Source: an uncultured Bacilli bacterium (GTDB lineage: Bacteria; Bacillota_I; Bacilli_A; RF39; UBA660). From it: 40,491 nt of DNA. Below are positions 1-8,446 of this stretch, piece after piece; position 1 is the first letter of the stretch, and every line of letters starts with the position of its first letter. A program made the position numbers and the translations under genes. The notes under the pieces are model-generated. The model did no database searches. It was not told the origin of the DNA and saw nothing but the letters and a program-made list of their open reading frames with translations. The DNA is taken from the NCBI GenBank assembly GCA_947595045.1, contig CANQEN010000004.1, forward strand, positions 1 through 40,491. Direction: 5' to 3'.

Positions 1-43
1 TATTTTTATTTCTTAATTCTTGTATTTTTTTGCTAAATTCCAT
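1..43 (-). CDS. N-terminal fragment of a probable XRE-family regulator, truncated by the window edge
   Basis: Minus-strand ATG at 41-43 preceded by AAGGAGAA; reads MEFSKKIQELRNKN, typical of XRE HTH N-termini. Only 14 residues visible. Confidence 0.45.
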   Translation of the reverse strand, partial: MEFSKKIQELRNKN

Positions 44-134
44 AACTATATTTCTCCTTGACAACTTACTATTTATCGCTCTGTTTACATTTAAAATTAT
101 ATCATAAATTTACAATTATTCACATTCTTTTAAT

Positions 135-428
135 TTAACTTTTTATGCTATTTTGCATTTTTAAAATCAATTCTACTTCTTCATTCATTTGAAGATAAGC
201 ATTTGTTATTATTTGCTCATATTCTTCTATTTTTTTGTTATGTTCTTCTAATTTTTTCTTTTGAAAAAATAAAGGTTTAGTATCTTCTAAAAATCTTATT
301 TGACTTTGATAAAATTTAATTTTATTATCAAGAACTTTTAGATATAATTCAGAATCCTTAATTCCATATATTAAACATAGATCTATTACTTTATTTAATA
401 ATTCATTATCTTTGTTCTTTTTACTCAT
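135..428 (-). CDS. hypothetical protein (charged, coiled-coil-like), mobile-element cargo
   Basis: 97-aa ORF with an SD-like AGAGAGGTTGATAATATG context; no family recognised. Confidence 0.5.
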   Translation of the reverse strand: MSKKNKDNELLNKVIDLCLIYGIKDSELYLKVLDNKIKFYQSQIRFLEDTKPLFFQKKKLEEHNKKIEEYEQIITNAYLQMNEEVELILKMQNSIKS

Positions 429-543
429 ATTATCAACCTCTCTTTTACAAAATTATAACACACATCAGCAAAAAATAATCTTCAAATCAGCAAATTTCTA
501 AATTTTTTGTTATTAATGGGAAAATTAATTATAGGTGATAACT

Positions 544-990
544 ATGATTGATTACACAAAACTAAAAGATATTAGAGAAGATAATGAAATAAGCCAAGAA
601 GAAATGGCAAAGTACTTAAATATTCCTCGTTCAACATATTCAATGTGGGAGATTGGTATCAGTATTATTCCTTTACCTTATTTATGTAAATTGAGTGATT
701 ATTTTAATTTTAGTGTAGATTATATTTTAGGACTTACTGACAATAGAAGTAGCAAAAACTTAATTAAGGACTTTGATATTAAGACTTTAGGAAATAATTT
801 GAAAGAAATTAGATTGAAACATGAGTTATCTCAAGAAAATGTTGCTGATATTCTTGGTGTTAAACAACCATGTATCTACAAATATGAAAAAGGACTAATT
901 TGTATTTCAACTTCTAATCTCTACAAGTTTTCTAAAGAGTTCAAAATATCTATGAACGAAATTTGCGGAAAAGGGAAAATAGGAAAATAA
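544..990 (+). CDS. protein with two tandem XRE-type helix-turn-helix domains
   Basis: Two HTH_3-like segments (KLKDIREDNEISQEEMAKYLNIPRSTYSMWE and NLKEIRLKHELSQENVADILGVKQPCIYKYE). Start at 544 preferred because AGGTGATAACT precedes it. Confidence 0.8.
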   Translation: MIDYTKLKDIREDNEISQEEMAKYLNIPRSTYSMWEIGISIIPLPYLCKLSDYFNFSVDYILGLTDNRSSKNLIKDFDIKTLGNNLKEIRLKHELSQENVADILGVKQPCIYKYEKGLICISTSNLYKFSKEFKISMNEICGKGKIGK

Positions 991-1013
991 AAAGATGAAT
1001 TTGATCGATTAGA

Positions 1014-2360
1014 TTATCTCTCAAAATCATCTTTATTTTTTGAATTATTTTGAATAATATCAATATCATTTTCATCAAGTATATCTTCATCATATAAATC
1101 ATCAATGAAGTCATCATACTTATTAGAAGAGAAGAATTTATTTTGTAAAAATTCTATAAATTTTTCCCACAATTCTTTAAAGTAATCAACTATTTTTTGT
1201 AATTCTGATACCTTATCTTCTAACTCATCAATAGTTTCATTTGCTTCGTTCAAATCATATTCTAATTCTTCAATTCTATCATCACGAGTTTTTATTTTCT
1301 TTTTTAAATTTCTAACTTCGTTAGAGTGTTCTCTTAAATCATCTTCATATTTTTTTAAGACTATATTTATATCATTTGCATTTCTTAAATTAGAAGTAGT
1401 GTCATTAGTTTGTTCTATATATTTTTTGATTTTATCTATATTTTCATTAGAAATAGTAAAGTTATTTTTATTAGTGATAGTAGGTTTTAAATTATCAATA
1501 ATATCATTAATCTCATTAGATTTGTTTTTTAATTCATCTGCTTTATTATTCAGTTCTTTAAGTTGCTTTTTGTATTTTTCTTGTTCTCGTTTGAACTTTT
1601 TATATTCATTCATATTAGCAACATTAATATCAACATTTCTTCCTTCTTCTTTTTCTTTAAGAGTGTAGTTTAAATGATAAATTCTATTAAAGGAATTAAT
1701 ACAATATACTCTCATTTTATCTTGAATTTCTTTTAAACTTATTTTATTAAAGACATCAGATTTACCAACTTGTTTCTCCATACCATTTTTCATTCCATCT
1801 TTAAAAGGGACACCAACTATATGTAAATGTGGACTTGATTCATCAAAATGAATAGTTGCATTTGCGATCTTAAAATTAGGCACAACTTCTTCTAAATCTG
1901 ATATTTGCTCTTTAAAGACATCAACCATTTTATGTTTAAATTTATCATTTTTATCAGACCAAAAATCCATATCTCCAAGTTCAATAATTATTTCACAAGC
2001 AAGATCTCTTTTGTTATCATTTGAGATATGATTAAAATAATTTTCTATCTGTCTATCATTTCTAGTTTGCTTTTCGTTGTATTTAATTCGTGCATCTTCA
2101 AACAAATCTAAATACAAATTTTTAGTATCTTCTACAACAGAAGATGTTCCTTTAATCGTACAAATTAATTCTTTTTCATCATCATATTTTCTCAAATTAT
2201 GTTTATCAACTTTTGATAATTGTTGATGATTTTGGATTGCATTATTATTAAATGAAGTAGTATTAGTATCATTCGTTTTTGCTGTTCTTCTTGCTCGTTT
2301 TGATTTATTTTTGTCATTACCTAAATGTAATGAATAAGATAATTCTTCCTTATCATTCAT
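1014..2360 (-). CDS. MobV-type relaxase (plasmid recombination/mobilization enzyme, Pre/Mob family)
   Basis: Motif ATIHFDESSPHLHIVGVPF (HxDExxPHxH), N-terminal KHNLRKYDD motif, long C-terminal coiled coil. Confidence 0.85.
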   Translation of the reverse strand: MNDKEELSYSLHLGNDKNKSKRARRTAKTNDTNTTSFNNNAIQNHQQLSKVDKHNLRKYDDEKELICTIKGTSSVVEDTKNLYLDLFEDARIKYNEKQTRNDRQIENYFNHISNDNKRDLACEIIIELGDMDFWSDKNDKFKHKMVDVFKEQISDLEEVVPNFKIANATIHFDESSPHLHIVGVPFKDGMKNGMEKQVGKSDVFNKISLKEIQDKMRVYCINSFNRIYHLNYTLKEKEEGRNVDINVANMNEYKKFKREQEKYKKQLKELNNKADELKNKSNEINDIIDNLKPTITNKNNFTISNENIDKIKKYIEQTNDTTSNLRNANDINIVLKKYEDDLREHSNEVRNLKKKIKTRDDRIEELEYDLNEANETIDELEDKVSELQKIVDYFKELWEKFIEFLQNKFFSSNKYDDFIDDLYDEDILDENDIDIIQNNSKNKDDFER

Positions 2361-2390
2361 ATTTTATATTCCCCCTTTGTTAGAATAGAG

Positions 2391-2498
2391 TCCTACTATT
2401 TATAGTAGGGTAATTTTGCTATGTCAAAATCTCTAACCCCCTATAGATTTTGACGCAAGCATCAAAATCTGGGGGGCTAAGGTTTAGGCAACCTTAGA
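2391..2498. other. candidate oriT: cluster of three hairpins upstream of the relaxase gene
   Basis: CCTACTAT-tt-ATAGTAGG (2392-2409); CCCCC...AGATTTTGA-cgcaagca-TCAAAATCT...GGGGG (2437-2476); CTAAGGTT-taggc-AACCTTAG (2477-2497), immediately upstream of the relaxase start. Confidence 0.55.
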
Positions 2499-2843
2499 AT
2501 CCACCTGTCTTATTCCGTAATATTTCAAAACTTCGTAATGAAATAAAACTACATAAGACTTCTGATAAAATAATAAGCACTGCTTTTTATTTTATCTTTT
2601 AAAATCATTCGTACTTTTACAAACTTTGTAAGTAAAAGTTCTCATAATTTTATCTAAACAATCTATCGCCAATTTCATCAGCATAGCTGACAAAACTTGC
2701 CACGATTGTTATAACTTTTTTTAAAAAAAGTTAACAAAAAATTTTTCTTTGATTGATAACTTCAAAACTAAAAATATTATTTTTGTTTTAAAGTTTTTCA
2801 ATTATTGCTCTTACTTTTGTTAGTCAAGAATCAAGACAAGCAA

Positions 2844-4715
<1,872 letters not shown>

Positions 4716-4747
4716 TTAATCAAATCCTTTCTATCTTTATCTATCAA

Positions 4748-4799
4748 AAAAGAGGCGACAAAGACAATAACAATCGTTTTATGTCTTTGACACCTCTAA
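4748..4799 (-). terminator. intrinsic terminator or attenuator in the leader of the serine recombinase gene
   Basis: Minus strand AGAGGTGTCAAAGACA...TGTCTTTGTCGCCTCT followed by TTTTTT, between the promoter at 4881-4908 and the recombinase start at 4715. Confidence 0.65.
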
Positions 4800-4880
4800 T
4801 GGTTATTCATATAAATTGTATTACTTCAACTTTGTTTTATATTAACCCCACAAAACATAAAACTTGTTTCTTGGTTGTTT

Positions 4881-4908
4881 ATTATATAGAGTTTTACCTA
4901 AAAGTCAA
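4881..4908 (-). promoter_or_regulatory. sigma-A-like promoter for the serine recombinase
   Basis: Minus strand TTGACT-16 bp-TATAAT. Confidence 0.65.
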
Positions 4909-4963
4909 GACATATAGCCCATTTTAAGCCCAATAGGGCGAGTTTTTACTTGAAATAGTATAT

Positions 4964-5248
4964 TTATACTAATTTTTTAATATATTCTTCTAAATCTGAT
5001 AATTTAATCTTGTTTGATAGATTTTCAATAAATATCTCATTAGAATAATTAAATGCTAGAAAATTAATACCTTTAATGATAATTCTATGGGGTTCAATGT
5101 AGGTTAAATTAGTTTTATCTATCTTACGAATATTACCATTTATAATAGTAGGTGTAGTTTTAGCAAATTCACAGATAAACTCAATTTTCCTTTTTAAAGA
5201 TTCATCAATAGATATTTCTTCCTTAATAATATTTACCATAGTTCCCAT
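4964..5248 (-). CDS. hypothetical protein
   Basis: 94-aa ORF with AAAGGATGGG upstream; no family recognised. Confidence 0.5.
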   Translation of the reverse strand: MGTMVNIIKEEISIDESLKRKIEFICEFAKTTPTIINGNIRKIDKTNLTYIEPHRIIIKGINFLAFNYSNEIFIENLSNKIKLSDLEEYIKKLV

Positions 5249-5348: not shown

Positions 5349-5422
5349 TGGAGCGGGTGATGGGAATCGGACCCACGTTATCAGCTTGGAAGGCTGGAGT
5401 TCTACCATTGAACTACACCCGC
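5349..5422 (-). tRNA. tRNA-Gly (anticodon TCC), CCA encoded
   Basis: Reverse complement GCGGGTGTAGTTCAATGGTAGAACTCCAGCCTTCCAAGCTGATAACGTGGGTCCGATTCCCATCACCCGCTCCA folds as a cloverleaf: 7-bp acceptor GCGGGTG/CACCCGC, anticodon loop CTTCCAA, discriminator U. Confidence 0.93.
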
Positions 5423-5651: not shown

Positions 5652-5697
5652 TAAAAAAAGCAACTATATCATTTATGATTAATTTGTGATATAGTTG
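5652..5697 (-). terminator. intrinsic terminator of the radical SAM / HMUDK_hel-like operon
   Basis: Minus strand AACTATATCA...TGATATAGTT (10 bp) followed by GCTTTTTTT. Confidence 0.75.
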
Positions 5698-5717
5698 TTA
5701 AATGGAATTTTTAATAA

Positions 5718-6689
5718 TTATTTTGAGTTAACTTTAGATTTTTCGTAATATTGAGTATTATTCCACTTTGGAGGATAAATATAATTAATTTTATCTTTTT
5801 TGGGAATGTAATGTTTTTTGATTTTTGATCTATTAGATTTTAATTCTGGCAATGCTTTTCTACAATATTTATCTAATTCACAAAATATATTTTGACAATC
5901 AATTAATTGTAATGGTCTATTAGCAATTCTTCTAAAATCTAAATTAAGTCTTTTAAATTCTTCATCTTGATGTTCAAACATATATCTAATAATATCTTCA
6001 TTACTCATTTTCCCTTTATCAATAAAACATTTTTTAATTCCTCTAAGTGATCCTGGTCCAGCAATTGTAAATTCATCTTCTTTCCAATTTACTATTTCAC
6101 TATAATTAATATCTGTTACCAATTGATATGCCATAAAGTTTCCTATTAAAGGATAATTTTTAATTATATTAAAGGCTTCTTCCATAGTTTTACACTTAAC
6201 TATTTTATCTTGCATTCTATCTTCATTAAACATTTTATTGAGTAAGGCTAAATGGTTATCATGTTTTCTATTATATCCAAATGCTTTATTAGCACAACTG
6301 ATATAAGCATCATTATATATTTTAATACCATTTGTCATAGCTTCTTCTAATACTTTAGAATATTCTTTTATGTTAAATGTTTTTAGCGTGATATCGTGAA
6401 AATTATTTAACAATAATTCCCAAGTATATTCTTTATTAAATAGCTTAAATAATAATATCCTAAATAACATATCTTCATCCTCATATTTTTGACCATTATA
6501 AATCACATTTTTTAATAAATATTGACTTACACGATCATTAACTCTATAACTATTACAAAATTTATATTCTTGTAATATTTTATCATCAGTCCATGGAGCA
6601 GGTTCGCCATTTATTTTTTTCCAAAATATATTTTGTCTTTCATAAGCAAAATACCAATATAAATCATATACTTCTTGTCTTTTTTTCAT
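5718..6689 (-). CDS. putative DNA base hypermodification protein: alpha-glutamyl/putrescinyl thymine pyrophosphorylase / 5-hmdU DNA kinase helical-domain (HMUDK_hel) family
   Basis: Family-like segments: YWYFAYERQNIFWKK, PWTDDKILQEYKFCNSYRVNDRVSQYLLKNVIY, NFMAYQLVTDINYSEIVNWKEDEFTIAGPGSLRGIKKCF, and C-terminal LQLIDCQNIFCELDKYCRKALPE. Recognised from memory. Confidence 0.78.
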   Translation of the reverse strand: MKKRQEVYDLYWYFAYERQNIFWKKINGEPAPWTDDKILQEYKFCNSYRVNDRVSQYLLKNVIYNGQKYEDEDMLFRILLFKLFNKEYTWELLLNNFHDITLKTFNIKEYSKVLEEAMTNGIKIYNDAYISCANKAFGYNRKHDNHLALLNKMFNEDRMQDKIVKCKTMEEAFNIIKNYPLIGNFMAYQLVTDINYSEIVNWKEDEFTIAGPGSLRGIKKCFIDKGKMSNEDIIRYMFEHQDEEFKRLNLDFRRIANRPLQLIDCQNIFCELDKYCRKALPELKSNRSKIKKHYIPKKDKINYIYPPKWNNTQYYEKSKVNSK

Positions 6690-6693
6690 ATTA

Positions 6694-7698
6694 TTACCTC
6701 ATACATTTTGGATCTTTTTCTTGGATACATCTTTTTAGAGTTAAGACTTTATTATCACTTTTAGTATAATTGGCAATTATCTTTTGTCCTATACAACCAC
6801 TTTTACATATAGGATATTGTGAACAATTATGGCAAGAATTATCAGTACTAAATTTTCTAATATTGGTAAAATACTCTGAATTATACATTTCCATTAATGA
6901 ATTTTCTTTTATATTTCCACTAATACCTAATTTAGTGAAATATTTAATTGAATCACAAGGATATGCTATCCCATCAAAACCAATTATCATTATTTCATCA
7001 GCTATGATACAAGGTGTATTTTTAATTCCTAGAATATTCCAAGGAGTACCTAATCTAATTTTATTTTTGTCATTTACATTTAAATAGAAGTTTTTAACTG
7101 CTAACAATTCTTCTGTTGATAAATCCATGTCGCTAATTCCTTTACCATGTGGCACAAAGCGCAATAAACTAACTCTATCAAAATAGCTTTTATTTTTAAA
7201 CGATTCTATAGTTTCAGTTACCACTGATTCCAATTTATAGAGAGAATCTTTTGAAACAGTGTAATGAAATCCTAATCGTGCGTTATTATTTTCAAATACA
7301 CTATCAAAAAATTCCGTTCTATTATAAATAGAAATATCTTCTTTATTAGATAATGAATCAGCAAGTGAATAAATTATTTTATTTAATCCTAATTTAATTA
7401 ATTCTCTATATTTATTTAAATTTTCATCAGTTCTATATGCAAAAGTATAAATAATTGATTCCATTCTTAATTTTGAAGTTAATTTAACAAGTTCAGGAAG
7501 TTTATCATACATTAAAGGTTCGCCACCTGTAAAAATAATAGTATTAGCACCCATTAGCTTGGCTTCATTTATGATTTTCAATACATCTTTAAAATCTAAC
7601 TCTTTTAAGTCGCCGATATTATTAGTAGCGTTACTTGAACAATGTTTGCAATTTCTAGAACATTTATTAGTCAATTCTATTTTTAAATCTTTAAGCAT
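6694..7698 (-). CDS. radical SAM protein with C-terminal SPASM-like Cys-rich region
   Basis: CSRNCKHC (CxxxCxxC), TGGEPLMY, and C-terminal CHNCSQYPICKSGCIGQK plus later Cys. Ends 4 nt before the next gene. Confidence 0.88.
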   Translation of the reverse strand: MLKDLKIELTNKCSRNCKHCSSNATNNIGDLKELDFKDVLKIINEAKLMGANTIIFTGGEPLMYDKLPELVKLTSKLRMESIIYTFAYRTDENLNKYRELIKLGLNKIIYSLADSLSNKEDISIYNRTEFFDSVFENNNARLGFHYTVSKDSLYKLESVVTETIESFKNKSYFDRVSLLRFVPHGKGISDMDLSTEELLAVKNFYLNVNDKNKIRLGTPWNILGIKNTPCIIADEIMIIGFDGIAYPCDSIKYFTKLGISGNIKENSLMEMYNSEYFTNIRKFSTDNSCHNCSQYPICKSGCIGQKIIANYTKSDNKVLTLKRCIQEKDPKCMR

Positions 7699-7954
7699 AA
7701 TCTCATCTCATAAAATATTATAACATATAATATTAAATTTTTAAGATAACTAGTTTGCTTTTTTTTATGAAATTTTTATCCAATTTATCTAATTAATTTA
7801 AGCCATTTTTAAAGTTATAGCAATATAACAAAAAAATAAGTTCGTTAAAGGAAAATATACTTTATTACATATAAATAGTTAAAATATATCAAAATTATGG
7901 TAAAATTATATTAATTAGGGATTTATATTTAAATAAACTAGAGTTGGTGATAAT

Positions 7955-8446
7955 ATGCATGTTGTTCATCCTTTAAAACCTATTTATGATAGAAATTCTA
8001 AAGTTTTAATTTTAGGTAGTATGCCATCTGTTAAATCACGTGAGTTAGGTTTTTATTATGCTCATCCACAAAATCGTTTTTGGAAAATATTAGCGAAAAT
8101 ATATAATGAACCAATTGCTACGACTATTGAGGCTAGAAAAAATTTCTTATTAAAACACCATATTGCTCTTTTTGATGTTATCCAAAGTTGTGATATAATA
8201 TCATCGAGTGATAGTAGTATTAAAAATCCTATTCCTAATGATTTTACACCAATTTTAGAAACCGCTAATATTAAAGCTATTTTTACAACAGGGCGTAAAG
8301 CTTATCAATTGTATAATAAATATTGTTATTCTAAAACGGGAACAGTAGCTAAAATACTTCCTAGTACTTCACCAGCTAATTGTAGAAAAGGAATAGAAGA
8401 AGAATTACTATTAGCTTATAGTCAAATAAAAAAGTATACTGATTAA
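7955..8446 (+). CDS. uracil-DNA glycosylase superfamily protein, DNA-deoxyinosine (hypoxanthine) glycosylase-like
   Basis: LILGSMPSVKSRELGFYYAHPQNRFWKIL and LPSTSPAN motifs. Confidence 0.82.
   Translation: MHVVHPLKPIYDRNSKVLILGSMPSVKSRELGFYYAHPQNRFWKILAKIYNEPIATTIEARKNFLLKHHIALFDVIQSCDIISSSDSSIKNPIPNDFTPILETANIKAIFTTGRKAYQLYNKYCYSKTGTVAKILPSTSPANCRKGIEEELLLAYSQIKKYTD

What the first reader, a model, noticed from the sequence alone, without database searches (positions are those of the whole stretch)
5652..7698. Two-gene chromosomal cassette: radical SAM/SPASM enzyme plus HMUDK_hel / thymine-pyrophosphorylase-family protein
The two minus-strand genes are 4 nt apart and end at a dedicated terminator. 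Seen: radical SAM CxxxCxxC plus a SPASM-like Cys cluster, and a partner with segments (KFCNSYRVNDRVSQYL, GPGSLRGIKKCF, LQLIDCQNIFCELDKY) I associate with the aGPT-PPlase / 5-hmdU DNA kinase helical-domain family. Established: in bacteriophages these families take part in thymidine hypermodification (5-hmdU-derived bases), and radical SAM enzymes appear in some of those pathways. Inference: here, outside an obvious phage and beside a tRNA/mobile-element junction, the pair may be a compact base-modification, epigenetic or defence/anti-restriction module. No 5-hmdU-forming enzyme (dUMP hydroxymethylase or thymine dioxygenase) is in the window, so the substrate is open; it could also be RNA or a free nucleotide. 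I do not recall this two-gene unit being characterised.
Basis: partly seen in the sequence, partly recalled or inferred. Interest (0 to 1): 0.82.

Follow-up and report, generated by a model that had tools for sequence, protein, structure and literature searches.

The report
Mobile thymine-modification-type two-gene cassette
A small gut-type bacterium carries a pair of genes, an enzyme of the family that viruses use to decorate the thymine in their DNA and a radical-chemistry enzyme, that moves between related bacteria as a unit and most likely belongs to the arms race with viruses, though what it does has not been tested.

Summary
5718-6689(-) matches Pfam PF18723 HMUDK_hel (E 1.7e-107; formerly aGPT-PPlase clade 1). 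6694-7698(-) is a radical SAM/SPASM enzyme. They lie 4 nt apart and end at a convincing terminator. In the same GTDB family I found 20 loci with this pair and 14 with the helical-domain gene alone, nearly all in different chromosomal places. Both states are under purifying selection, and identity does not follow that of the core gene sufB, so the unit is horizontally mobile. Outside this family the same helical domain usually sits beside a thymidylate-synthase-like gene, and on plasmids in loci that look like immune loci. One contig has ACP-HTH-peptidase-TS-[thymidylate kinase fused to helical domain]-radical SAM, with a radical SAM of the same subfamily. The helical protein has a confident all-helical model related to viral 5-hmdU DNA kinase helical domains and amino acid:DNA transferases; HhH DNA glycosylases head the PDB list, below significance. 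No kinase, TS/hydroxymethylase or transferase lies beside the pair, and the host genome has ThyX, not ThyA. Best reading: a stripped-down, mobile thymine/5-hmdU-acting module of phage-host conflict. The chemistry and the defence role are untested.

The parts
5718..6689 (-). 323-aa PF18723 (HMUDK_hel, formerly aGPT-PPlase clade 1) protein, stand-alone, no kinase domain
   Evidence: PF18723 E 1.7e-107; phrog_2396 E 4.3e-59; family-invariant R18, F44, N46, R49, D52, A128, F185, Q189, G211, G213, C270, E271, K274 all present; AF2 model pLDDT 92.6
6694..7698 (-). 334-aa radical SAM/SPASM enzyme; CxxxCxxC at residues 13-20, GGEP at 58-61, C-terminal cluster motif CKSGCxxQK...C...DPxC
   Evidence: Pfam PF04055 3.5e-16 and PF13186 4.5e-10; no NCBIfam equivalog above cut-off; alignment A3
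5653..5697 (-). intrinsic terminator downstream of the helical-domain gene (stem 5661-5697, U-tract 5653-5659)
   Evidence: RNA fold -10.9 kcal/mol, z -3.55
7717..7744 (-). promoter-like site TTAAAA-16-TATAAT with TG before the -10 box, just upstream of the radical SAM start codon
   Evidence: consensus scan (number of sites not above shuffles); a TATAAT-like box and purine-rich stretch just upstream of the first gene recur in related loci
5349..5422 (-). tRNA-Gly(TCC) flanking the cassette on the side of the integrated element; context, not part of the unit
   Evidence: ARAGORN

Best explanation
The cassette is a horizontally mobile, self-contained two-gene transcription unit from the thymine-hypermodification world. 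Shown: family membership, operon, terminator, mobility, purifying selection, and recurrent linkage of the same two protein families in other bacteria. Inferred: the PF18723 protein binds DNA (or a nucleotide) through a fold distantly like HhH glycosylases, presents a C5-substituted uracil such as 5-hydroxymethyl-dU, and acts on its C5 substituent, alone or with a host kinase; the SPASM radical SAM enzyme then does radical chemistry on that product. Because no thymidylate-synthase-type hydroxymethylase or 5-hmdU kinase was found in the host genome, the most likely source of the substrate is an infecting phage with 5-hmdU-derived DNA or its nucleotide pool. The cassette would then be an accessory phage-conflict module that corrupts or intercepts phage DNA or nucleotides, kept or lost strain by strain.
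For: PF18723 match and family-invariant residues. Confident model whose significant structural matches are viral 5-hmdU DNA kinase helical domains and other PF18723-type proteins, with amino acid:DNA transferases below; all the leading PDB matches are HhH-GPD glycosylases, although none is significant. TS-like gene near 40 of 77 relatives outside the host family. L102: ACP-HTH-ImmA-TS-[Thymidylate_kin+HMUDK_hel]-radical SAM, whose radical SAM shares the C-terminal Cys motif. Parabacteroides plasmid: ThsB-TIR, Nmad2, HMUDK_hel, radical SAM. Gloeothece plasmid: CBASS phospholipase, HMUDK_hel, MazG-type, TIR. Sister clade in rhizobia: TIR-Nmad2-TS-methyltransferase-HMUDK_hel. Radical SAM relatives fused to MazG point to a nucleotide-type substrate. 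Patchy presence, 13 of 193 family genomes; many chromosomal sites; identity unrelated to sufB (Spearman -0.03); pN/pS 0.15 pair, 0.24 solo. Host has ThyX but no ThyA or HMUDK_HMUD1 match. Published E. coli systems containing a 5-hydroxymethyluracil kinase and a thymidylate synthase domain are anti-phage (PMC13092281), and phosphorylating 5hmU in DNA lowers transcription in vitro (PMC6457204).
Against: No activity is known for a stand-alone PF18723 protein; all chemistry is by analogy. The host-family loci are not in defence islands: 148 neighbours gave scattered PADLOC hits, with few methyltransferases. Neither protein matches a defence family specifically. No phage of these hosts with 5-hmdU DNA was identified. 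The absence of TS and kinase is from a 92.6%-complete genome, and the kinase search had no positive control. I could not show that the E. coli system is homologous to this clade.
Confidence: 0.4

Rival explanations
1. Self-modification: the pair decorates thymine (or a rare C5-modified uracil) in the host's own DNA or dNTP pool, as an epigenetic or anti-restriction mark.
For: Phage relatives serve to modify the phage's own DNA; in M6 a TS, kinase (PF18748), PF18723, PF18724 transferase, PLP enzyme and radical SAM sit in one region. The cassette's neighbours include an integrated element with relaxase and recombinase.
Against: No 5-hmdU-forming enzyme found beside the pair, and no ThyA-type TS in the host genome. 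Fourteen loci carry the helical-domain gene with neither TS nor radical SAM nearby.
Confidence: 0.2
2. Direct removal: the PF18723 protein is a glycosylase-like defence enzyme that excises modified thymines from phage DNA, in the manner of the Brig family but on a different fold.
For: All leading PDB fold matches are HhH-GPD DNA glycosylases, and the segment YPLIGNFMAYQ aligns with the HhH motif LPGVGRKTANV of the relatives' endonuclease III-type proteins. Published Brig glycosylases defend against phages with modified bases (PMC11078745, PMC13160076). Works for the solo state.
Against: Phages with hypermodified thymine encode PF18723 themselves, where base excision would be self-destructive. 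Fold and profile matches to glycosylases are below significance. Brig1 is described as UDG-like, not HhH.
Confidence: 0.13
3. RNA or small-molecule pathway: the pair modifies a uridine in RNA, or makes a modified nucleoside or nucleotide product unrelated to DNA.
For: Radical SAM relatives are fused to MazG NTP-pyrophosphatase domains. Plasmid operons hold acyl carrier protein, TS and MazG/MazG_C, all nucleotide- or thioester-level enzymes. Radical SAM enzymes such as BlsE and DesII, which act on nucleoside- or sugar-type substrates, are among the fold matches.
Against: PF18723's best-studied associations are with DNA-level hypermodification of phage genomes.
Confidence: 0.17
4. Decayed passenger: a remnant of a phage or plasmid modification operon with no present function.
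For: Several copies are broken (G238, G010 and G087 fragments of the helical gene; split radical SAM in L024). Core partners are missing.
Against: Intact frames in about 31 loci, pN/pS 0.15-0.24, conserved gap and upstream elements.
Confidence: 0.1

Closest known systems
PF18723 HMUDK_hel / aGPT-PPlase clade 1 (phage M6 gp55; Bacillus phage SP10 and SBSphiC kinase-helical fusions)
   Same: Same domain over its whole length, same invariant residues, same predicted fold
   Different: Here cellular, stand-alone, with no kinase and no TS-type hydroxymethylase; phage copies sit in hypermodification clusters
Phage M6 thymidine hypermodification cluster (TS, 5-hmdU DNA kinase, PF18723, ADDT, PLP enzyme, radical SAM)
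   Same: Combines PF18723 with a radical SAM enzyme
   Different: M6 gp53 radical SAM is not detectably related to the window's SPASM enzyme; kinase, ADDT, PLP enzyme and TS are absent here
Plasmid operon ACP-HTH-ImmA-TS-PF18723-MazG/MazG_C, and L102 ACP-HTH-ImmA-TS-[TMK+PF18723]-radical SAM
   Same: PF18723 of the same bacterial group (about 42-49% identity); in L102 a radical SAM with the same C-terminal Cys motif
   Different: The window has only two of the six genes, and in reverse order
Parabacteroides plasmid locus SLATT-like/ThsB-TIR/Nmad2/PF18723/radical SAM SPASM/HD-like
   Same: PF18723 directly followed by a radical SAM/SPASM gene
   Different: Radical SAM only 24-25% identical; TIR, Nmad2 and other genes absent in the window
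DefensePredictor-validated E. coli systems with 5-hydroxymethyluracil kinase and thymidylate synthase domains (PMC13092281)
   Same: Same functional theme, named domain type, and shown to be anti-phage
   Different: Homology to this clade not established here; no radical SAM mentioned in that paper
Brig DNA glycosylases (PMC11078745, PMC13160076)
   Same: Bacterial proteins acting on modified bases of phage DNA
   Different: UDG fold in Brig1; no radical SAM partner

Membership tests
PF18723 HMUDK_hel | Profile match over the curated cut-off along the whole domain | tested here: met
   359.5 bits against 25, profile positions 2-280 of 281
PF18723 HMUDK_hel | Family-invariant residues present | tested here: met
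   13 invariant columns over 62 sequences
PF18723 HMUDK_hel | Same fold as viral 5-hmdU DNA kinase helical domains | tested here: met
   Foldseek to SP10 protein E 4.8e-13, TM 0.80 on the query
5-hmdU DNA kinase | P-loop kinase domain fused or adjacent | tested here: not met
   No kinase hit in either ORF; no PF18748 match in the host genome, though that search had no positive control
Thymidine hypermodification pathway | dUMP hydroxymethylase / TS-type enzyme in the cluster or genome | tested here: not met
   None beside the pair in the host-family neighbourhoods; no PF00303 match in the host genome, 9 control genomes positive; ThyX present
ADDT amino acid:DNA transferase (PF18724) | Profile match | tested here: not met
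   No PF18724 hit at E<=1; only marginal profile similarity, P 5.8e-4, probability 29%, and fold similarity
HhH-GPD DNA glycosylase | Fold and catalytic motif | tested here: inconclusive
   Top PDB folds, E 0.3 or worse; only the HhH motif aligns; no PF00730 hit
Radical SAM/SPASM | CxxxCxxC, GGEP and SPASM cluster cysteines | tested here: met
   PDB fold matches to CteB-type sactisynthase, PqqE, SuiB and SkfB
Prokaryotic viperin | Score over the equivalog cut-off | tested here: not met
   33.7 bits against 180; the PADLOC pVip matches are moderate and may reflect the general radical SAM core
Phage M6-type hypermodification radical SAM | Relation to M6 gp53 | tested here: not met
   No profile or hhalign relation
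Anti-phage defence system | Protection against phage | not testable with these tools
   Needs phage challenge

The most novel reading that the evidence does not exclude
A minimal mobile immune module in which an HhH-like thymine/5-hmdU-acting protein and a SPASM radical SAM enzyme attack or tag the hypermodified thymines of invading phage DNA without the host making the modified base itself: phage DNA-modification machinery turned against phages.
Probability: 0.25. Interest if true: 0.78.

Novelty: new variant of a known kind. Interest (0 to 1): 0.55.

Why it matters
PF18723 proteins are annotated in bacteria only as 'nucleotide kinase domain-containing' or 'putative DNA base hypermodification protein', and I found no report of what a cellular stand-alone copy does. 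This cassette is the smallest natural arrangement found here: it is mobile, under selection, and in a host where no 5-hmdU-forming enzyme was found. That makes the question testable: is the phage thymine-modification toolkit used by bacteria as an immune weapon? The comparison also shows a wider, little-described set of loci (TS/kinase/PF18723/radical SAM or MazG, near TIR, Nmad2 or CBASS-effector genes) that deserves a systematic survey.

Tried and rejected
Close relatives in viral contigs: none for either protein alone; only the family alignment reached 70 loci. Brig family: rejected as a homologue, since Brig1 is described as UDG-like. M6 radical SAM as orthologue: rejected. Viperin: rejected by cut-off. 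Defence-island context in the host family: not supported. Conserved third partner in the host family: none. Terminal repeats or a defined mobile end around the cassette: none found; flanking similarity is limited mostly to the promoter/RBS region and to related genomes, and no direct repeat flanks the unit in the window. E. coli homologues by DNA similarity: none. The key papers (Iyer 2013; Lee 2022) were not held in the library; what I say of amino acid:DNA transferase chemistry is from my own knowledge.

Full report
OBSERVATION. The 323-aa ORF matches PF18723 HMUDK_hel at E 1.7e-107 over the whole profile and PHROG 2396 at 4e-59. The 334-aa ORF is a radical SAM enzyme with a SPASM domain; no NCBIfam equivalog is reached. 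The genes are 4 nt apart and are followed by an A+T-rich hairpin with a U-tract (z -3.55). The two families are probably distant relatives (hhalign P 5.8e-4; Foldseek matches to ADDT proteins at probability near 1, E about 0.01-0.08).

DISTRIBUTION. In the window's own GTDB family (uncultured Erysipelotrichaceae/Bacilli/Tenericutes MAGs by record titles; 'RF39-like' is my own label) PF18723 occurs in 13 of 193 sampled genomes, and in 4 of 392 sampled across the phylum. I compared 37 loci of this family. In 20 the radical SAM gene lies directly 5' of the helical-domain gene, with a gap of 1-5 nt in 17 of 18 measured loci (the 18th has a shortened match). In 14 the helical-domain gene stands alone. 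Three are contig-end fragments. Nearly every locus has different neighbours, and no third partner recurs. Close relatives of the radical SAM were found only in genomes that also have the helical gene (3 of 13 against 0 of 180, Fisher P 2.4e-4). The 32 full-length sequences form one supported clade (100/96), within which pair and solo states are mixed, with about 7 changes. Identity of the helical protein to the window does not follow that of SufB (Spearman -0.03 over 13 genomes; for example G186 87% against 61%). Median pN/pS is 0.15 (pair) and 0.24 (solo). I read this as horizontal movement of a functional accessory unit whose radical SAM gene is optional; repeated gain against repeated loss of the radical SAM cannot be told apart.

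RELATIVES ELSEWHERE. The nearest clade outside the host family is two rhizobial plasmid loci with TIR-Nmad2-TS-methyltransferase-helical protein. Plasmids of cyanobacteria, rhizobia and Streptomyces carry ACP, HTH, ImmA peptidase, TS-like gene, helical protein and a MazG/MazG_C protein. Gloeothece has a CBASS-type phospholipase and a TIR gene around it. Two loci outside the host family combine PF18723 with a radical SAM, in the order opposite to the window. One is the Parabacteroides plasmid (also seen as a viral contig, L115): SLATT-like, ThsB-TIR, Nmad2, PF18723, radical SAM/SPASM, HD-like (the SLATT and HD labels are my reading, without a Pfam hit). The other is contig L102: ACP, HTH, CapP-like peptidase, TS-like, thymidylate kinase fused to PF18723, radical SAM. 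L102's radical SAM is 30% identical to the window's and keeps the C-terminal CKSGCxxQK...C...DPxC motif. In all, 40 of 77 relatives outside the host family have a TS-like gene within 2.5 kb. Radical SAM relatives at 40-44% identity in the host family carry a MazG domain inserted before the last Cys motif; none of those genomes carries PF18723 in the same sample.

STRUCTURE. The helical protein folds with pLDDT 92.6, pTM 0.90. Viral matches are 5-hmdU DNA kinase helical domains, best E 4.8e-13, then ADDT. Against the PDB nothing is significant, but the leading matches are all HhH-GPD DNA glycosylases, and the conserved YPLIGNFMAYQ segment aligns with their HhH motif. I treat the glycosylase-like fold as likely but not proven. 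The radical SAM model is moderate (pLDDT 77.6) and matches SPASM maturases and, lower, nucleotide- or sugar-acting enzymes such as BlsE, DesII, viperin and MoaA; this does not settle its substrate.

HOST. No ThyA-type thymidylate synthase (9 of 14 control genomes positive) and no PF18748 kinase (no control positive) were found in the 92.6%-complete genome; a ThyX-type match is present. So an internal source of 5-hmdU was not found.

MECHANISM. The common thread over the relatives is TS-made hydroxymethyl-dU (by analogy with phages) plus PF18723 plus a variable tailoring enzyme: kinase, glycosyltransferase, methyltransferase, radical SAM or MazG-type. In the window only PF18723 and the tailoring enzyme remain. 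I infer that PF18723 recognises and acts on C5-substituted uracil and that the radical SAM acts on its product. With no internal source found, the likeliest supplier is a phage, hence a role in phage-host conflict. Precedents: E. coli systems with 5-hydroxymethyluracil kinase and thymidylate synthase domains protect against phage (PMC13092281), and phosphorylating 5hmU in DNA lowers transcription in vitro, which its authors suggested could serve as defence against such phages (PMC6457204). None of this was tested on the window's proteins, and I could not show homology of the E. coli system to this clade.

NOVELTY. I found no paper describing a PF18723-radical SAM cassette, within a library that lacks most subscription papers and the two key ones. 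The families are known; the stripped, mobile cellular cassette and its optional radical SAM are a new variant.

Noticed in passing
window 1-5248: Integrated mobile element beside the tRNA-Gly: HTH regulator, Mob_Pre relaxase (1014-2360), large serine recombinase (2844-4715) and a 94-aa ORF (4964-5248) with no Pfam hit. Relatives of the recombinase or the 94-aa ORF lie near the helical-domain gene in L016, L019, L025 and L036.
   Followed up: partly
window 7955-8446: A UDG-superfamily protein (PF03167, E 2.7e-12) is transcribed divergently from the cassette; it is not conserved next to other copies.
   Followed up: partly
L066:5523-7196, L067:6141-7784, L069:2489-4141, L070:1613-3319: Radical SAM/SPASM proteins about 43% identical to the window's carry a MazG domain inserted before the last Cys motif; this architecture may be undescribed. 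In L066 it follows BtpA-like, SIS-like and Ham1-like genes (labels from reading the sequence only).
   Followed up: partly
L102:1944-7036: Operon ACP-HTH-CapP-like peptidase-TS-like-[thymidylate kinase fused to HMUDK_hel]-radical SAM on a contig filed as viral.
   Followed up: partly
L061:3334-8492: Parabacteroides plasmid locus with SLATT-like, ThsB-TIR, Nmad2, HMUDK_hel, radical SAM/SPASM and HD-like genes; a candidate uncharacterised immune system.
   Followed up: partly
L057, L058, L059, L063, L065: Six-gene plasmid operon (ACP, HTH, ImmA, TS-like, HMUDK_hel, MazG/MazG_C) across cyanobacteria, rhizobia and Streptomyces; the short TS-like protein has no Pfam hit, although a profile built from the longer TS relative reaches it.
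   Followed up: partly
L078:828-4843 (phage LuckyBarnes), L122: Phage clusters with TS, glycosyltransferase(s) and HMUDK_hel but no kinase detected nearby, suggesting that the helical protein is not tied to the kinase.
   Followed up: no
L174 (host contig 6): The host appears to use ThyX (50.9 bits, within a 405-aa open frame, longer than a usual ThyX) rather than ThyA.
   Followed up: no
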